DNA of 64,000 nt from Deltaproteobacteria bacterium (GTDB lineage: Bacteria; Myxococcota_A; UBA796; GCA-2862545). Made by a program: the position numbers and the translations under genes. The notes beneath the pieces were generated by a model. That model made no database searches. It was given only the letters and a program-made list of their open reading frames with translations, and had not been told where the DNA came from. The stretch covers positions 1-64,000 of the forward strand of contig SBGP01000110.1 in assembly GCA_006226595.1 (NCBI GenBank), given 5' to 3'. Every line of letters starts with the position of its first letter. Position 1 is the stretch's first letter. Shown piece after piece: positions 15,339 to 20,340 of the stretch.

Positions 15339-15767
15339 CTACTCGACGGTGATGTCGGTGGGCAGATCGGTGACCTTGTCGCCGTTCTGCACGTCGTGCT
15401 TCTCGAACCAGCCGACGTTCATCTCGAGTGCGTACTTCGCCGGGTACAGCGACTGCGTGCGCTCGACCGAGAGCGGCTCCATCTGTGCGATCTTCACGAT
15501 GGTGCCGTCCTTGCTCAAGTACGCGATGTCGAGCGGGATGAGCGTGTTCTTCATCCAGAACGAACGCGGGCGCTCGTCGTTGTAGATGAACAGCATGCCC
15601 TCGTCGGCAGGCATGCTCTCGCGGTGCATGAGCCCGATCTCGCGGTCCTTGGAGGTCGCGGCGAGCTCGACCTTCACCGGGTTTCCGTCGACGGAGATGG
15701 TGTGGACGGGCAGGCCCTTCTTGCCGCAAGCAGCGAGGAGGAGCACGACGGGAAGCAGGCGAAGCAT
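15339..15767 (-). CDS. DUF192 lipoprotein
   Basis: 142 residues; signal [18 protein letters not shown] with lipobox LAAC. The mature part is a single DUF192 domain (RPRSFWMKNTLIPLDIAYL, ALEMNVGWFEKH), a small beta-barrel of unknown function found widely in bacteria. The start overlaps the ruvB stop: ATG at 15767 shares its A with TGA, and a GTG three bases earlier is also possible. It is thus the last cistron of the ruv operon, which is unusual for an envelope lipoprotein. Confidence 0.92.
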   Translation of the reverse strand: MLRLLPVVLLLAACGKKGLPVHTISVDGNPVKVELAATSKDREIGLMHRESMPADEGMLFIYNDERPRSFWMKNTLIPLDIAYLSKDGTIVKIAQMEPLSVERTQSLYPAKYALEMNVGWFEKHDVQNGDKVTDLPTDITVE

Positions 15768-16765
15768 CACAGCAGCGACCCCTGTGGGTTGTCGTCGGGA
15801 AGGCCCAGGTGCTCGCGTCCGCGCGGGGTGACCACGCGCCCACGGGGGGTGCGCTTGAGTAGGCCGCGCTGGATGAGGTAGGGCTCGTAGGTGTCCTCGA
15901 TGGTGTCCGAGGACTCGCCGATCGCGGCGGCGAGCGTCTGCAGGCCGACCGGGCCGCCTGAGAACACGACCGCGATGGTGTGGAGGATGCGGCGGTCCAT
16001 CTTGTCGAGGCCGGCATGGTCGACCTCGAGGCGCTCGAGGGCCACGCGGGTGATCTCGCCGTCGATGGTGCCATCTCCGTCGACCTCGGCGAAGTCGCGG
16101 ACCCGGCGGAGCAGGCGCAGAGCGATGCGCGGGGTGCCGCGGGCGCGGCTGGCGAGCTCCTTGCGGCCCTCGGGAGTGAGCACGACACCGACGCGCTCGG
16201 CGGCGCGGGCGAGCACCTGCTCGAGCTCGGCGGGCTGGTAGAAGTCGAAGGTCGCGTGGATGCCGAAGCGCGCGCGGAGGGGGGCCGTGAGCAGGCCGCT
16301 GCGCGTGGTCGCGCCGACCAGGGTGAACCGCGGCAGCGGCAGCTTCACCGACTGGGCGCCAGGTCCCGTACCGAGCACGACGTCGATCTCGAAGTCCTCC
16401 ATCGCTGGGTAGAGGATCTCCTCGACCGCGCGGTTCAGGCGGTGGATCTCGTCGATGAACAGGACCTCGTGGTCCTTGAGGTTGGTGAGGATGGCCGCGA
16501 GGTCGCCGCCACGCTCGATGGTCGGGCCCGAGGCGGTGCGCACGTCGGTGCCCATCTCTTCGGCGAGGATGTACGCGAGCGAGGTCTTGCCGAGCCCAGG
16601 TGGTCCGGCGAGAAGCACGTGATCGAGGGACTCGCCGCGGGAGATGGCCGCGCGGATGTACACGCGCAGGTTGTCCACGATGCGGGCCTGGCCGACGAAC
16701 TCGTCGAGGCGTCGCGGGCGGAGGGCGCGGTCCTGGCCGTCATCCGGTTCGTCGAAGATGCTCAT
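15767..16765 (-). CDS. ruvB: Holliday junction branch migration ATPase RuvB
   Basis: AAA+ motor that works with RuvA to drive branch migration. 332 residues. Walker A is GPPGLGKTS (about 54-62), Walker B is LFIDEIHRL, sensor 1 is VGATTRSG, and the arginine finger lies in LRARFGI. The C-terminal winged helix ends [15 protein letters not shown] overlaps the ruvA stop (ATGA), so the ruvC-ruvA-ruvB order is translationally coupled. Confidence 0.98.
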
Positions 16766-17370
16766 GCGTTCCCGTAGAGGATCTTGAGGGCGGCGCGCAG
16801 GCGTTGGGCAATCGGGGCATCAGGCGACACGCCTTCGTCGAGGAGCTTGCTGCGCACGAGCTCGATCTCGGCCTTCTTGTAGCCGAGACGCTCGAGCGCG
16901 GCCGGCAGCGTGTCGGTCTCGGTGGAGGCCGAGGCCGCTGGAGTCGCTCCGATTGGGGCTCCATGGCGGGTGGGCAGCTTGCCCTTGAGCTCCAGCGCGA
17001 TGCGCTGCGCGGTCTTCTTGCCCACTCCAGGAATGCGGGAGAGGGACTTCACATCATCGCTCTCGACGGCGGTGTGCAGGGCATCGAGCTCGAGGGTGTC
17101 GAGCGCGGCGAGGGCGAGCTTGGGCCCGACCCCGGAGACGGCGATGAGCTGGGTGAACGCCTCGCGGTCGACCTTCGACGGGAAGGCATACAGGGCGATG
17201 GCGTCCTCGCGGACCTGCGTGGACACGTGCACCGTGACGTCTTCGTCCGCGCGAAGCCACGCCTCGAGCGCGTGCACCGGGGAGAACACCTCGTAGCCGA
17301 CGCCGCGGACATCGAGGATGCCGGTGTTGCCGTCGCGCTCGACAAGCGTTCCGGTGAGTCGTCCGATCAT
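16762..17370 (-). CDS. ruvA: Holliday junction branch migration complex subunit RuvA
   Basis: Tetrameric junction-binding partner of RuvB. 202 residues: OB-fold domain I ([20 protein letters not shown]), two helix-hairpin-helix motifs ([14 protein letters not shown] and [23 protein letters not shown]), an Ala/Thr-rich linker about residues 138-152, and a domain III that contacts RuvB ([12 protein letters not shown]). Start ATG overlaps the ruvC stop by four bases. Confidence 0.97.
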
Positions 17371-17858
17371 GCGGGCCTCGTGAGCGCCACGCGTCGGGCG
17401 TGGGCGCAGTGGGTGACGGCGATGGCCACGGCATCGCTCGCGTCGAGGGGGCCGGGAATCTCTTCGCCGAGCAGCAGGGTCAGCACCTTGCGTACGGCGT
17501 GCTTGTCGGCCCGGCCGTGCGCGCCGATCGAGCGCTTCACGGTCATCGGGTTGTACGGATGGGCGACGAACCCGGCCTGAGCGGCGGCGAGGATGGCGAC
17601 GCCACGGGCCTGTCCGAGGGTCAGCGCGCTGGCGCTGGACTTGTGCTTGAACACCGCCTCGATGGCCACGGCATCGAGGGTGTGGCGAGCGAAGACCTCG
17701 GCGAGTCCCTCGTGAATCACCTTGAGGCGCTCGCCCATGTCCCACGCGGCCTGGGTCCGTACGCAGCCCGACTCGATGAGGTGCACGCGCCCGCGGCGCT
17801 TCTCGACGATGCCGAAGCCGGTGACGGTGGAGCCAGGATCGATGCCGAGGACGCGCAT
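17367..17858 (-). CDS. ruvC: Holliday junction resolvase RuvC
   Basis: Endonuclease that resolves Holliday junctions; acts with RuvAB. I choose the ATG at 17858 because MRVLGIDPGS is the family N-terminus; an upstream GTG would add 17 Pro-rich residues. The catalytic acids are visible: Asp in GIDPGST, Glu in AIEAVF, and the Asp pair in LDASDAVAIAVTH. 163 residues, normal length. No purine-rich ribosome site precedes the start (the region is C-rich), so initiation may be weak. First gene of ruvC-ruvA-ruvB-DUF192. Confidence 0.96.
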   Translation of the reverse strand: MRVLGIDPGSTVTGFGIVEKRRGRVHLIESGCVRTQAAWDMGERLKVIHEGLAEVFARHTLDAVAIEAVFKHKSSASALTLGQARGVAILAAAQAGFVAHPYNPMTVKRSIGAHGRADKHAVRKVLTLLLGEEIPGPLDASDAVAIAVTHCAHARRVALTRPA

Positions 17859-17899
17859 GGGGAGGCGGGGAGGGAGGGGAGGGGGGTGCAGGCGTTCAG

Positions 17900-17928
17900 T
17901 GTATAGCACCCGGAACCGGGCGACCCAA
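17900..17928 (-). promoter_or_regulatory. candidate -35/-10 promoter of the ruv operon
   Basis: Read on the minus strand: TTGGGT (17928-17923), 17 bases, then TATACA (17905-17900). Spacing is ideal for the housekeeping sigma factor. The -10 ends 41 bases upstream of the ruvC ATG. Confidence 0.45.
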
Positions 17929-17994: not shown

Positions 17995-18061
17995 GGGGTC
18001 TGACCCTGGAGGGGGGTCTGACCCCAGGGAGGGGTCAGACCCCCCTCCAGGGTCAGACCCC
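17995..18061. repeat. perfect 31-bp inverted repeat with 5-base loop
   Basis: Left arm 17995-18025 and right arm 18031-18061 are exact reverse complements, separated by AGGGA. Each arm holds two units of the near-palindrome GGGGTCTGACCC(C), so the whole is four copies of a 12-13 base word in a symmetrical array. It lies in the 326-base gap between the LpxC-like gene stop (18185) and ruvC. The rest of that gap (17929-17994 and 18062-18184) shows only an 8-base direct repeat TCGTCGAT near 17968 and nothing coding. It could act as a strong hairpin terminator for the upstream minus-strand operon or be a REP-like mobile repeat. Confidence 0.9.
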
Positions 18062-18184: not shown

Positions 18185-18928
18185 CTACTCGGCGGTGCGA
18201 ACCACGCGGGCGAGCGGCTCGAGGTCGGCGCCGACCAGCTCCAGTCGCGCAGACACACCGGCCACCGCCAGTCCCGCGAGCGCACACACCATGTGCCAGC
18301 GCAAGCCCTCGTCGGGGCACGCGAGCTCCGCGGCCGAAGTGGCGCAGTTCTCGGGACCGAGGCCCAGCCATCGGCCCTCGGCATGTGCGTCTTCGAGGTC
18401 GAAGTGCACACGCCGCGCCGAGCCGAGCTCGGCAGCGAGCAGGGCGCCGTCGAGGGGAAGCAGGCCCTCGCCTGTCTTGCCGGGGCCGTCGTCGAGGCGA
18501 ACCGCCACCGCGGCTTCCGCGGGCACGAGTGCCGCGTAGCCCTCGTCTCCGCTCACGAAGCGTGCCTCGTCGAGCGCTGGCGCCGTCCACGCCGGGCCCT
18601 CGGTGGTACGAAGTCGCTGGAGCCAGGTGCCCAGCGTGCTCACAGGGATCTCCCCGCCGATGACGTCAATGCGCGCGTCGGTGATGCCAGCGACGAGCAG
18701 GGCCGCGAGCAGGGCCTCGACCCCGGCGACCTCCGAGGTCTCGCCGTAGAACACGAGTCCGTCGCCACCCTCGAGGTTCTCGCCGACCGCGGCAATCGCC
18801 TCGTCCTCCGTGCGGAACACGAGTCCACTCCCGAACGGCGCCGGGTGCACGGCCGCGGAGCACGCGCGCCCCTCGTGCGGACCGATGCCCTCGAGCACCA
18901 CCGGCTCGGTCACGGTCGCGCGGCTCAC
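18185..18928 (-). CDS. LpxC-like protein lacking zinc ligands (probable pseudoenzyme)
   Basis: 247 residues, shorter than the roughly 300 of LpxC. It aligns by eye with UDP-3-O-acyl-GlcNAc deacetylase: GIGPHEGRACSAAVHPAPFGSGLVF for GVGLHTG..RPAP..GVIY, then GVEALLAALLVAGITDARIDV..GEIPV, then EGLRWHMVCALAGLAVAG. The zinc ligands are gone: A72 replaces the first His, W211 the second, C215 the Asp. The general-base His of the SGH motif is also lost (VGADLE). E71 and H18 remain. It should not deacetylate lipid A precursor; binding or scaffolding is more likely. GTG start overlaps the TPR gene stop by four bases. Confidence 0.8.
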   Translation of the reverse strand: MSRATVTEPVVLEGIGPHEGRACSAAVHPAPFGSGLVFRTEDEAIAAVGENLEGGDGLVFYGETSEVAGVEALLAALLVAGITDARIDVIGGEIPVSTLGTWLQRLRTTEGPAWTAPALDEARFVSGDEGYAALVPAEAAVAVRLDDGPGKTGEGLLPLDGALLAAELGSARRVHFDLEDAHAEGRWLGLGPENCATSAAELACPDEGLRWHMVCALAGLAVAGVSARLELVGADLEPLARVVRTAE

Positions 18929-20340
18929 TGGTGTTGCTCCAGCATCGTCGCCGCTTCCTTGAACACGGGGTTGCCGGTGCGGCGGCCCACATCCTCGAGC
19001 AGCTTGGCCGCGTCCTTGAGGCGACCGGCGTCCTTGGCCGCGCCCACGAAGGCGAGGACCACGCGCGCATCGGGCATGCGCTGCACCGCGTCCGCCATCA
19101 GGTCGTAGGTGGCCTGCGCGTCCTCGGCCGAGAGCACCTGCCCATACGTGAGCAGCGCGCGCAGGTCGTAGGGGTGGGTTTCCACGGCGTCCTTGAGGCG
19201 AGCGCGCGCCGCGTCCATCTCCCCCGTCTGCGCCTCGGCGATGGCGGTGGCGACCTGCAGGCTCGCATCCACCGCGCGTCCCTCGACCGCCGCCTTCAGG
19301 TGCGGCTTGGCCGCCGCCGGGTCGGGGTCGAGGAGGATGAGCCCGAGGGCCGCATGCGCCTCGATGTTGTCCGGGTCGATGGACAGCGCCTTCTCGGCGT
19401 CGGCGCGGGCGCCCTTCAGGTCGTTGCGGGCGGCGTGGGCCGCGGAGCGCTCGACCCACAGCAGCGCGCACTTCGGGTATCCGGCAATCAGCGTGCTCCA
19501 CGCCTCGACGCGCCCACCCTCGCGGGCTTCTTCGGCGAGGTTGAAGCCCGAGGCGTCGAGGACCCCGTCCTGCTGGGCCTTGGCGTACATCATCCACCGC
19601 CGCGCGTCCGGGTCGAGCGGGTTGATCTCCAGCGCCGCACGAGCCGCGCGCTGCGCCTCCTTGCCTTTGCCCAGGGTCAGGTAGTGCCGGGCCAGGGCTG
19701 CGCGAAGGCGGGGGTCGGTGGGCGCGGCAGCCACGCCCTTCTCGAGGGTCTCGCCCGCGTGCTTCGGGTCCAGGGTGGCGACGGCCACGTAGTTGTCGCC
19801 GCGGGCTGGCACCTTCTTGATCGCGCGGCGTCCGACCTCGAGGGCCGCGTCCAGCTTGTTCTGGACCATGAGCACGGCACCGAGCCCCGACCAGGCATCG
19901 GCCAGCGTGTCGTTGGCGGACAGCGCGGTGCGGTAGGAGGCCTCGGCGGCGGCGAGGTCTCCGCGTGCGCGCTGCAGGTGGCCCAGCGCGGTGAGGGCGC
20001 GTGCATGGCCGGGGTCGAGCTTGAGTGCGGCGCGCAGCCCGTCTTCCATGCGGTCGGGCGTCGCACCCGCGAGTCCGCGGAGGTAGTGCGCGTCGGCGTC
20101 GCTCGAGGCGGCGGGGGCCAGGCCCGCGTAGATCGGGTCCACCGCGGCCGCCATACCTAGCGCGCGCATCACCCCGATGTAGCGCTCCTGCTTGTCCAGG
20201 TCCTCGGGAGCGGCCACGGCCTGGGCCTCGGCGAGGGGTGCGGCATCCGCGTACCTTCCCGCGAGGACCAGGTCTTCCACGCTCTCGGCGGCGAAGGACG
20301 GGGACACGAGCAGGGTCAGGAGCAGGAGCAGGGCGCGCAC
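18925..20340 (-). CDS. exported TPR protein, 471 aa
   Basis: A cleavable signal (MRALLLLLTLLVSPSFAAES) sends it to the periplasm. The rest is almost entirely alpha-helical tetratricopeptide repeats, for example ARALTALGHLQRARGDLAAAEASYRTAL, AWSGLGAVLMVQNKLDAALEV, EAHAALGLILLDP and ARVVLAFVGAAKDAGRLKDAA; I count about ten. Such proteins are assembly scaffolds. It is translationally coupled (GTGA) to the LpxC-like gene, so the two products probably act together even though that partner lacks a signal peptide. It is divergent from the PEGA-domain gene at 20419. Confidence 0.85.
   Translation of the reverse strand: MRALLLLLTLLVSPSFAAESVEDLVLAGRYADAAPLAEAQAVAAPEDLDKQERYIGVMRALGMAAAVDPIYAGLAPAASSDADAHYLRGLAGATPDRMEDGLRAALKLDPGHARALTALGHLQRARGDLAAAEASYRTALSANDTLADAWSGLGAVLMVQNKLDAALEVGRRAIKKVPARGDNYVAVATLDPKHAGETLEKGVAAAPTDPRLRAALARHYLTLGKGKEAQRAARAALEINPLDPDARRWMMYAKAQQDGVLDASGFNLAEEAREGGRVEAWSTLIAGYPKCALLWVERSAAHAARNDLKGARADAEKALSIDPDNIEAHAALGLILLDPDPAAAKPHLKAAVEGRAVDASLQVATAIAEAQTGEMDAARARLKDAVETHPYDLRALLTYGQVLSAEDAQATYDLMADAVQRMPDARVVLAFVGAAKDAGRLKDAAKLLEDVGRRTGNPVFKEAATMLEQHQ

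What the first reader, a model, noticed from the sequence alone, without database searches (positions are those of the whole stretch)
18185..18928. LpxC homologue with every zinc ligand replaced
The fold signatures of LpxC are kept over the whole length, but ligands read Ala, Trp and Cys and the general-base His is Ala. It is coupled to a periplasmic TPR gene, not to lipid A genes. A pseudo-deacetylase that binds acyl-UDP-GlcNAc or regulates true LpxC would be new.
Basis: partly seen in the sequence, partly recalled or inferred. Interest (0 to 1): 0.72.

Follow-up and report, generated by a model that had tools for sequence, protein, structure and literature searches.

The report
Dead LpxC kept after lipid-A loss
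A bacterial genus that appears to have lost the genes for lipid A (the anchor of its outer-membrane endotoxin) still keeps two enzymes of that pathway, LpxC and LpxA, both with their catalytic residues replaced, which suggests they were retained for some job other than catalysis.

Summary
The 247-aa frame at 18185-18928 (-) is an LpxC orthologue lacking all three zinc ligands (E. coli H79→A, H238→W, D242→C), plus D246, H265, K239, T191 and F192. The three ligands are invariant in the 46 other LpxC of its order that I aligned. It is the only LpxC in the genome, so it cannot regulate a true LpxC. The congener (G001) has the same losses. Both genomes lack LpxB, LpxK and KdtA, and LpxD is gone from its operon; five of the 19 other family members have lost the pathway and lpxC outright, and a sixth kept only LpxA. 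Lipid A was therefore lost before the two species split. Unexpectedly, both also keep a full-length LpxA whose catalytic His125 is Cys in both, evolving at a normal, constrained rate. In G001, 8 of the 9 near-invariant LpxC positions lost are active-site residues (p 6e-6) and the structural ones are kept. That fits a retained non-catalytic protein, not decay. In the window's species the gene evolves faster, has been inverted, and may be eroding. TPR coupling is local to this species. I rate it a new variant (pseudoenzyme pair outliving its pathway); its biochemical role is inferred, not shown.

The parts
18185..18928 (-). pLpxC: LpxC orthologue, 247 aa, no zinc ligands; sole LpxC of the genome
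18713..18718 (-). Codons for Glu71-Ala72 of pLpxC (E. coli Glu78 kept, zinc ligand His79 replaced by Ala)
   Evidence: position from the translation and the alignments
18284..18298 (-). Codons for W211-H-M-V-C215 (canonical H238-K-x-x-D242: ligands replaced by Trp and Cys)
18925..20340 (-). TPR-repeat protein with an apparent signal peptide; its stop overlaps the pLpxC start by 4 nt (GTGA). This arrangement is found only in the window's species
17367..17909 (-). ruvC, the conserved neighbour of lpxC in this family (followed by ruvA 16762-17370 and ruvB 15767-16765); fixes orthology by position
17995..18061 (.). 31-bp perfect inverted repeat (GGGGTCTGACCC units, -81 kcal/mol hairpin) between ruvC and pLpxC, absent from all fetched relatives; possibly linked to the inversion of the gene, or a terminator

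Best explanation
pLpxC is what remains of the lipid A deacetylase after the common ancestor of this genus stopped making lipid A. Shown: it is orthologous to the LpxC of its relatives by sequence and position; its zinc site is gone; the rest of the committed pathway (LpxD, LpxB, LpxK, KdtA) is not found in either species of the genus; LpxA is kept whole but with the catalytic His125 replaced by Cys in both. Inferred: both proteins were kept for a non-catalytic role. The mechanism I think most likely is that LpxA(C125), whose substrate pocket is largely intact, still binds UDP-GlcNAc and/or 3-hydroxyacyl-ACP beside FabZ as a precursor sensor or buffer, while pLpxC is a protein-binding scaffold that has lost its metal chemistry. 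In the window's species pLpxC is under weaker constraint and may be on its way out.
For: Sole LpxC. Losses shared with congener G001 (H79 to A in both, all other ligands lost in both), while 46 of 46 other LpxC of the order keep the ligands. LpxB, LpxK and KdtA absent from both, and the same closed junctions skp-fabZ-lpxA-aldehyde dehydrogenase in both, so the loss predates the split. LpxA over its curated cut-off in both with His125 to Cys in both and in no other LpxA examined. LpxA dN/dS 0.17 by NG86 and LpxA/RuvABC branch ratios of about 1.4-1.6, within the range of catalytic relatives. For pLpxC: open frame in both at 46% identity, gaps only in whole codons, third codon positions diverging more than first or second (p about 1e-5). 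In G001, 8 of 9 lost near-invariant positions are active-site residues (Fisher p 5.6e-6), the branch rate is that of a catalytic LpxC, and a GGAGG ribosome-binding site stands just before the ATG.
Against: In the window's species pLpxC evolves about 8 times faster than RuvABC. It has lost part of the LDG motif and some structural residues, and its branch omega ranges from 0.34 to 1.5 depending on the assumed neutral time, so near-neutral decay there is not excluded. Only two genomes represent the genus, and the congener at least is a MAG. No expression, binding or phenotype data exist, and no partner is known.
Confidence: 0.58

Rival explanations
1. pLpxC is a plain relic: function was lost with lipid A, and the frame simply has not yet been broken in two species.
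For: Fast branch in the window's species, structural residues lost, inversion of the gene. Five of the 19 other family members have lost lpxC and lpxA together with the pathway, and the ruvC flanks of three of them hold no remnant.
Against: No stop in either species although a neutral simulation at the observed divergence gives P about 0.008; gaps all in frame; losses focused on the active site in G001; third-position excess. It does not explain the strong constraint on LpxA(C125).
Confidence: 0.3
2. The two proteins still do chemistry, altered: LpxA with a Cys125-Asp126 pair and pLpxC without zinc take part in another acyl-sugar or envelope lipid pathway that replaced lipid A.
For: The LpxA pocket is otherwise largely intact in G001, Asp126 is kept, and LpxA is under strong constraint. 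FabZ beside it keeps the GHFPG and Glu motifs.
Against: Zinc-free deacetylation by an LpxC fold has no precedent known to me; His265, Lys239, Thr191 and Phe192 are lost as well.
Confidence: 0.09
3. Lipid A is made, and the missing genes lie in unassembled parts of both assemblies or are too diverged to detect, with pLpxC a regulator of an unseen LpxC.
For: Both assemblies are draft, about 97% complete.
Against: Four unlinked or partly linked genes are missing from two assemblies, while the same profiles find lpxB, lpxK and kdtA in 12 of the 18 other family genomes searched. The operon junctions where lpxD and lpxB should lie are closed.
Confidence: 0.03

Closest known systems
LpxC, UDP-3-O-acyl-GlcNAc deacetylase (PF03331, TIGR00325)
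   Same: Homologous sequence, same locus as catalytic LpxC of the family, LpxC as best solved fold (N-terminal 108 residues Z 18.5, rmsd 1.3 A to Aquifex LpxC), Glu78 kept.
   Different: All three zinc ligands, D246, K239, T191, F192 and H265 lost; far below the NCBIfam equivalog cut-off (29 of 187 bits); no pathway around it.
LpxA, UDP-GlcNAc O-acyltransferase (TIGR01852), the companion found here
   Same: Full length, over the curated cut-off, beside fabZ in the bamA-skp-fabZ-lpxA order.
   Different: Catalytic His125 is Cys; lpxD and lpxB are missing beside it. Opiyo et al. 2010 (PMC3087551) found that all bacteria they examined have either both LpxA and LpxD or neither.
Pseudoenzymes in general (homologues kept for binding or regulation after loss of catalysis)
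   Same: Selective loss of active-site residues with the scaffold kept, clearest in G001.
   Different: Here two consecutive enzymes of one pathway are affected and the pathway itself is gone. No paper in the library contains both LpxC and pseudoenzyme.
LapB/YciM, the TPR regulator that binds LpxC (PDB 8v24 among the fold hits)
   Same: A TPR protein next to an LpxC gene.
   Different: The TPR protein here has an apparent signal peptide and only TPR matches, no rubredoxin-type domain, and the coupling is not conserved.

Membership tests
LpxC (PF03331) | Profile match above the curated cut-off | tested here: met
   50.4 bits against 27, but only profile positions 2-97; congener matches 1-265 at 105 bits
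LpxC equivalog (TIGR00325) | Score above the equivalog cut-off | tested here: not met
   29.3 bits against 187.25
LpxC (PF03331) | Zinc ligands His79, His238, Asp242 | tested here: not met
   Ala, Trp, Cys in the window; Ala, Arg, Glu in G001
LpxC (PF03331) | Catalytic Glu78 and His265 | tested here: not met
   Glu78 kept, His265 lost in both
LpxC (PF03331) | LpxC fold | tested here: met
   Foldseek and VIA-align top hits are LpxC; N-terminal 108 residues firm, C-terminal part low confidence (mean pLDDT 57)
LpxC (PF03331) | Deacetylase activity in a lipid A pathway | not testable with these tools
   No assay; pathway genes LpxB, LpxK, KdtA absent
Functional LpxA | Catalytic His125 | tested here: not met
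   Cys in G000 and G001, His in all others aligned
Pseudoenzyme kept by selection | Loss focused on catalytic residues, scaffold and frame kept | tested here: met
   G001 p 5.6e-6, window p 0.0015
Pseudoenzyme kept by selection | Purifying selection after the loss | tested here: inconclusive
   Clear for LpxA (omega 0.09-0.53); for pLpxC 0.2-0.97 in G001 and 0.34-1.5 on the window branch, depending on the assumed neutral time; a free fit rejects omega 1 but with saturated branch lengths
LapB (for the TPR neighbour) | Cytoplasmic TPR plus rubredoxin-type metal domain | tested here: not met
   Only TPR families matched; N-terminus reads as a signal peptide

The most novel reading that the evidence does not exclude
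LpxA(His125Cys) and zinc-free LpxC form a repurposed non-catalytic pair that senses or buffers UDP-GlcNAc/hydroxyacyl-ACP, or scaffolds envelope assembly, in an outer-membrane-bearing genus without lipid A.
Probability: 0.3. Interest if true: 0.78.

Novelty: new variant of a known kind. Interest (0 to 1): 0.56.

Why it matters
Lipid A is thought of as the defining lipid of most outer membranes, and LpxC as its committed, drug-targeted step. A family in which the pathway was lost at least twice gives a natural series for asking how an outer membrane lives without it: intact genomes, a genus with dead LpxC and LpxA, a genome with LpxA alone, and genomes with nothing. Retention of catalytically dead LpxA and LpxC would imply a non-catalytic role for these proteins that might also exist, hidden, in ordinary Gram-negatives.

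Tried and rejected
True LpxC elsewhere in the genome: none. Wider orthologue search in 84,980 genomes: only the congener's own record was found, but the patterns used were narrow. The LptD profile matches nothing in the relatives searched and the LptF/LptG profile misses many genomes with a full pathway, so LPS transport genes are uninformative here. The four-base coupling to the TPR gene was considered as a clue to function and dropped, because it arises from an inversion seen only in the window's species. LapB-like function of the TPR gene: rejected. A free branch-omega fit gave small omegas but with branch lengths at their bound; I therefore refitted with fixed times and report ranges. A first tree script failed on a thread setting. 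The block at residues 121-170, best conserved between the two pseudo-LpxC, was considered as a new functional surface; it is nearly as conserved in the close catalytic pair G011/G020, so it is only a hint. The search for papers on the congener's isolate name found nothing. LpxD was not searched genome-wide with its own model; its absence rests on the closed skp-fabZ junction, on tblastn with E. coli and G003 LpxD at that locus, and on the lack of a second mid-scoring LpxA-profile hit such as LpxD gives in relatives.

Full report
OBSERVATION. The frame at 18185-18928 on the minus strand is open for 247 codons from a GTG. Its only Pfam match is LpxC (PF03331, E 2.9e-13, above the cut-off), limited to the first 97 residues, and the nearest solved structures by sequence are LpxC enzymes. 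In an alignment with E. coli LpxC and relatives the zinc ligands His79, His238 and Asp242 read Ala, Trp and Cys. Asp246, Lys239, Thr191, Phe192 and His265 are also lost; Glu78 and His19 are kept. Each of the three ligand positions is identical in all 46 other LpxC sequences of the order in which it could be read. An AlphaFold model from a shallow alignment is weak (mean pLDDT 57). Its confident N-terminal 108 residues overlay LpxC at 1.3 A (Z 18.5), and the whole model ranks LpxC first.

GENOME CONTEXT. The window's genome (G000, 7.2 Mb, 97% complete) has no other PF03331 match. Its order holds 63 genomes in the collection; families outside its own nearly all have full-length LpxC. Inside its own family (21 genomes) scores fall steadily and six genomes have none. 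LpxB, LpxK and KdtA profiles find nothing in G000, in its only congener G001, or in six other family members, while finding the genes in the 12 family genomes with ligand-bearing LpxC that were searched (G020 was not in those searches). The operon bamA-skp-(lpxD)-fabZ-lpxA-(lpxB) survives in G000 and G001 as bamA, skp, fabZ, lpxA, with lpxD and lpxB gone and an aldehyde dehydrogenase gene following in both. Because the junctions are the same, the pathway was lost before the two species separated. An Omp85/BamA gene and skp remain, so an outer membrane is expected.

THE COMPANION. LpxA is present in both species and over its curated cut-off. Its catalytic His125 is Cys in both, and in none of the other LpxA examined: 14 further family members, four from elsewhere in the order, and E. 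coli. The equivalent His121 of Pseudomonas LpxA is described as the catalytic base in PMC7072397; that replacing it in E. coli abolishes activity is my recollection. The rest of the pocket (Gln73, Asp74, His99, His122, His160, Gln161, Arg204) is kept in both; His144 and Asn198 are changed in G000 only. FabZ beside it keeps its motif residues. A third genome, G015, keeps LpxA without LpxC, LpxB, LpxK or KdtA; its LpxA groups with that of G003, which has the full pathway, so this loss looks independent.

SELECTION. The whole G000-G001 divergence postdates the loss of the pathway, so constraint in that interval is constraint on non-catalytic proteins. LpxA: dN/dS 0.17 by NG86, like RuvB at 0.16; branch lengths relative to RuvABC are in the normal range; omega is below 1 for every assumed neutral time. 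pLpxC: dN/dS 0.43, codon position 3 diverging at 0.55 against 0.34-0.35 at positions 1 and 2 (p about 1e-5), no stops where neutrality at that divergence predicts about five (P about 0.008), and gaps only in whole codons. Of 33 positions at least 93% conserved across the order, G001 lost nine, eight of them in the active site (p 5.6e-6). The window's species lost fourteen, including parts of the LDG motif. The branch to the window's species is about 8 times the RuvABC branch, and that to G001 about 2.5 times, within the range of catalytic LpxC pairs. Omega for the window branch cannot be separated from 1 if the neutral time is short. So the case for a retained role is good for LpxA, fair for pLpxC in G001, and open for the window's own copy.

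LOCAL ANATOMY. In relatives lpxC points away from ruvC; in the window it is inverted and starts inside the stop of the TPR gene (GTGA), while G001 keeps the ancestral orientation. A 31-bp perfect inverted repeat lies between ruvC and pLpxC only in the window's species. The TPR coupling is therefore no evidence for a conserved functional link.

INTERPRETATION. Catalysis by pLpxC is very unlikely. Regulation of a true LpxC is excluded by its absence. The best reading is a pseudoenzyme left by the loss of lipid A and kept, at least for a time, for binding or scaffolding, together with a catalytically altered LpxA. The precise role is inferred. Plain relic decay remains the main rival for the window's copy. 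Opiyo et al. 2010 (PMC3087551) report that the bacteria they examined have both LpxA and LpxD or neither, so LpxA without LpxD is itself unusual. The library holds no paper with LpxC and pseudoenzyme together. The congener is a MAG named 'Proteobacteria bacterium isolate GY13CH_bin.7'; the genus has no name here.

Noticed in passing
17995-18061: 31-bp perfect inverted repeat built of GGGGTCTGACCC units between ruvC and pLpxC (z -10 against shuffles); found in no fetched relative; looks like a mobile REP-like hairpin or a strong terminator.
   Followed up: partly
L064:9438-10211 (G000:C111): LpxA with catalytic His125 replaced by Cys, shared with L065:9213-9989 of the congener; possibly the more interesting half of the finding.
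   Followed up: yes
L066:1827-2606 (G015:C1321): Orphan LpxA in another genome without LpxB, LpxC, LpxK or KdtA: His125 kept but Gln161 to Pro, His144 to Ala, Arg204 to Ala; a second, apparently independent retention of LpxA.
   Followed up: partly
L064:11310-14963 (G000): About 3.8 kb between bamA and skp in G000, absent in G001, carrying a large membrane protein that reads like a glycosyltransferase (no Pfam match in the frame tried) and a methyltransferase.
   Followed up: no
L035 and L036 (G006): One family member carries two different LpxC genes, both with all zinc ligands.
   Followed up: no
L128, L129 (IMG/VR contigs): LpxC-encoding contigs filed as viral; the ligand motifs are kept as far as read. 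Either contamination or phage-borne lpxC.
   Followed up: no
L022 (G034): An LpxC in the order with odd residues at T191 (Pro), D246 (Asn) and H265 (Asp) but intact ligands; may be a frameshifted end, an alignment slip or a real variant.
   Followed up: no
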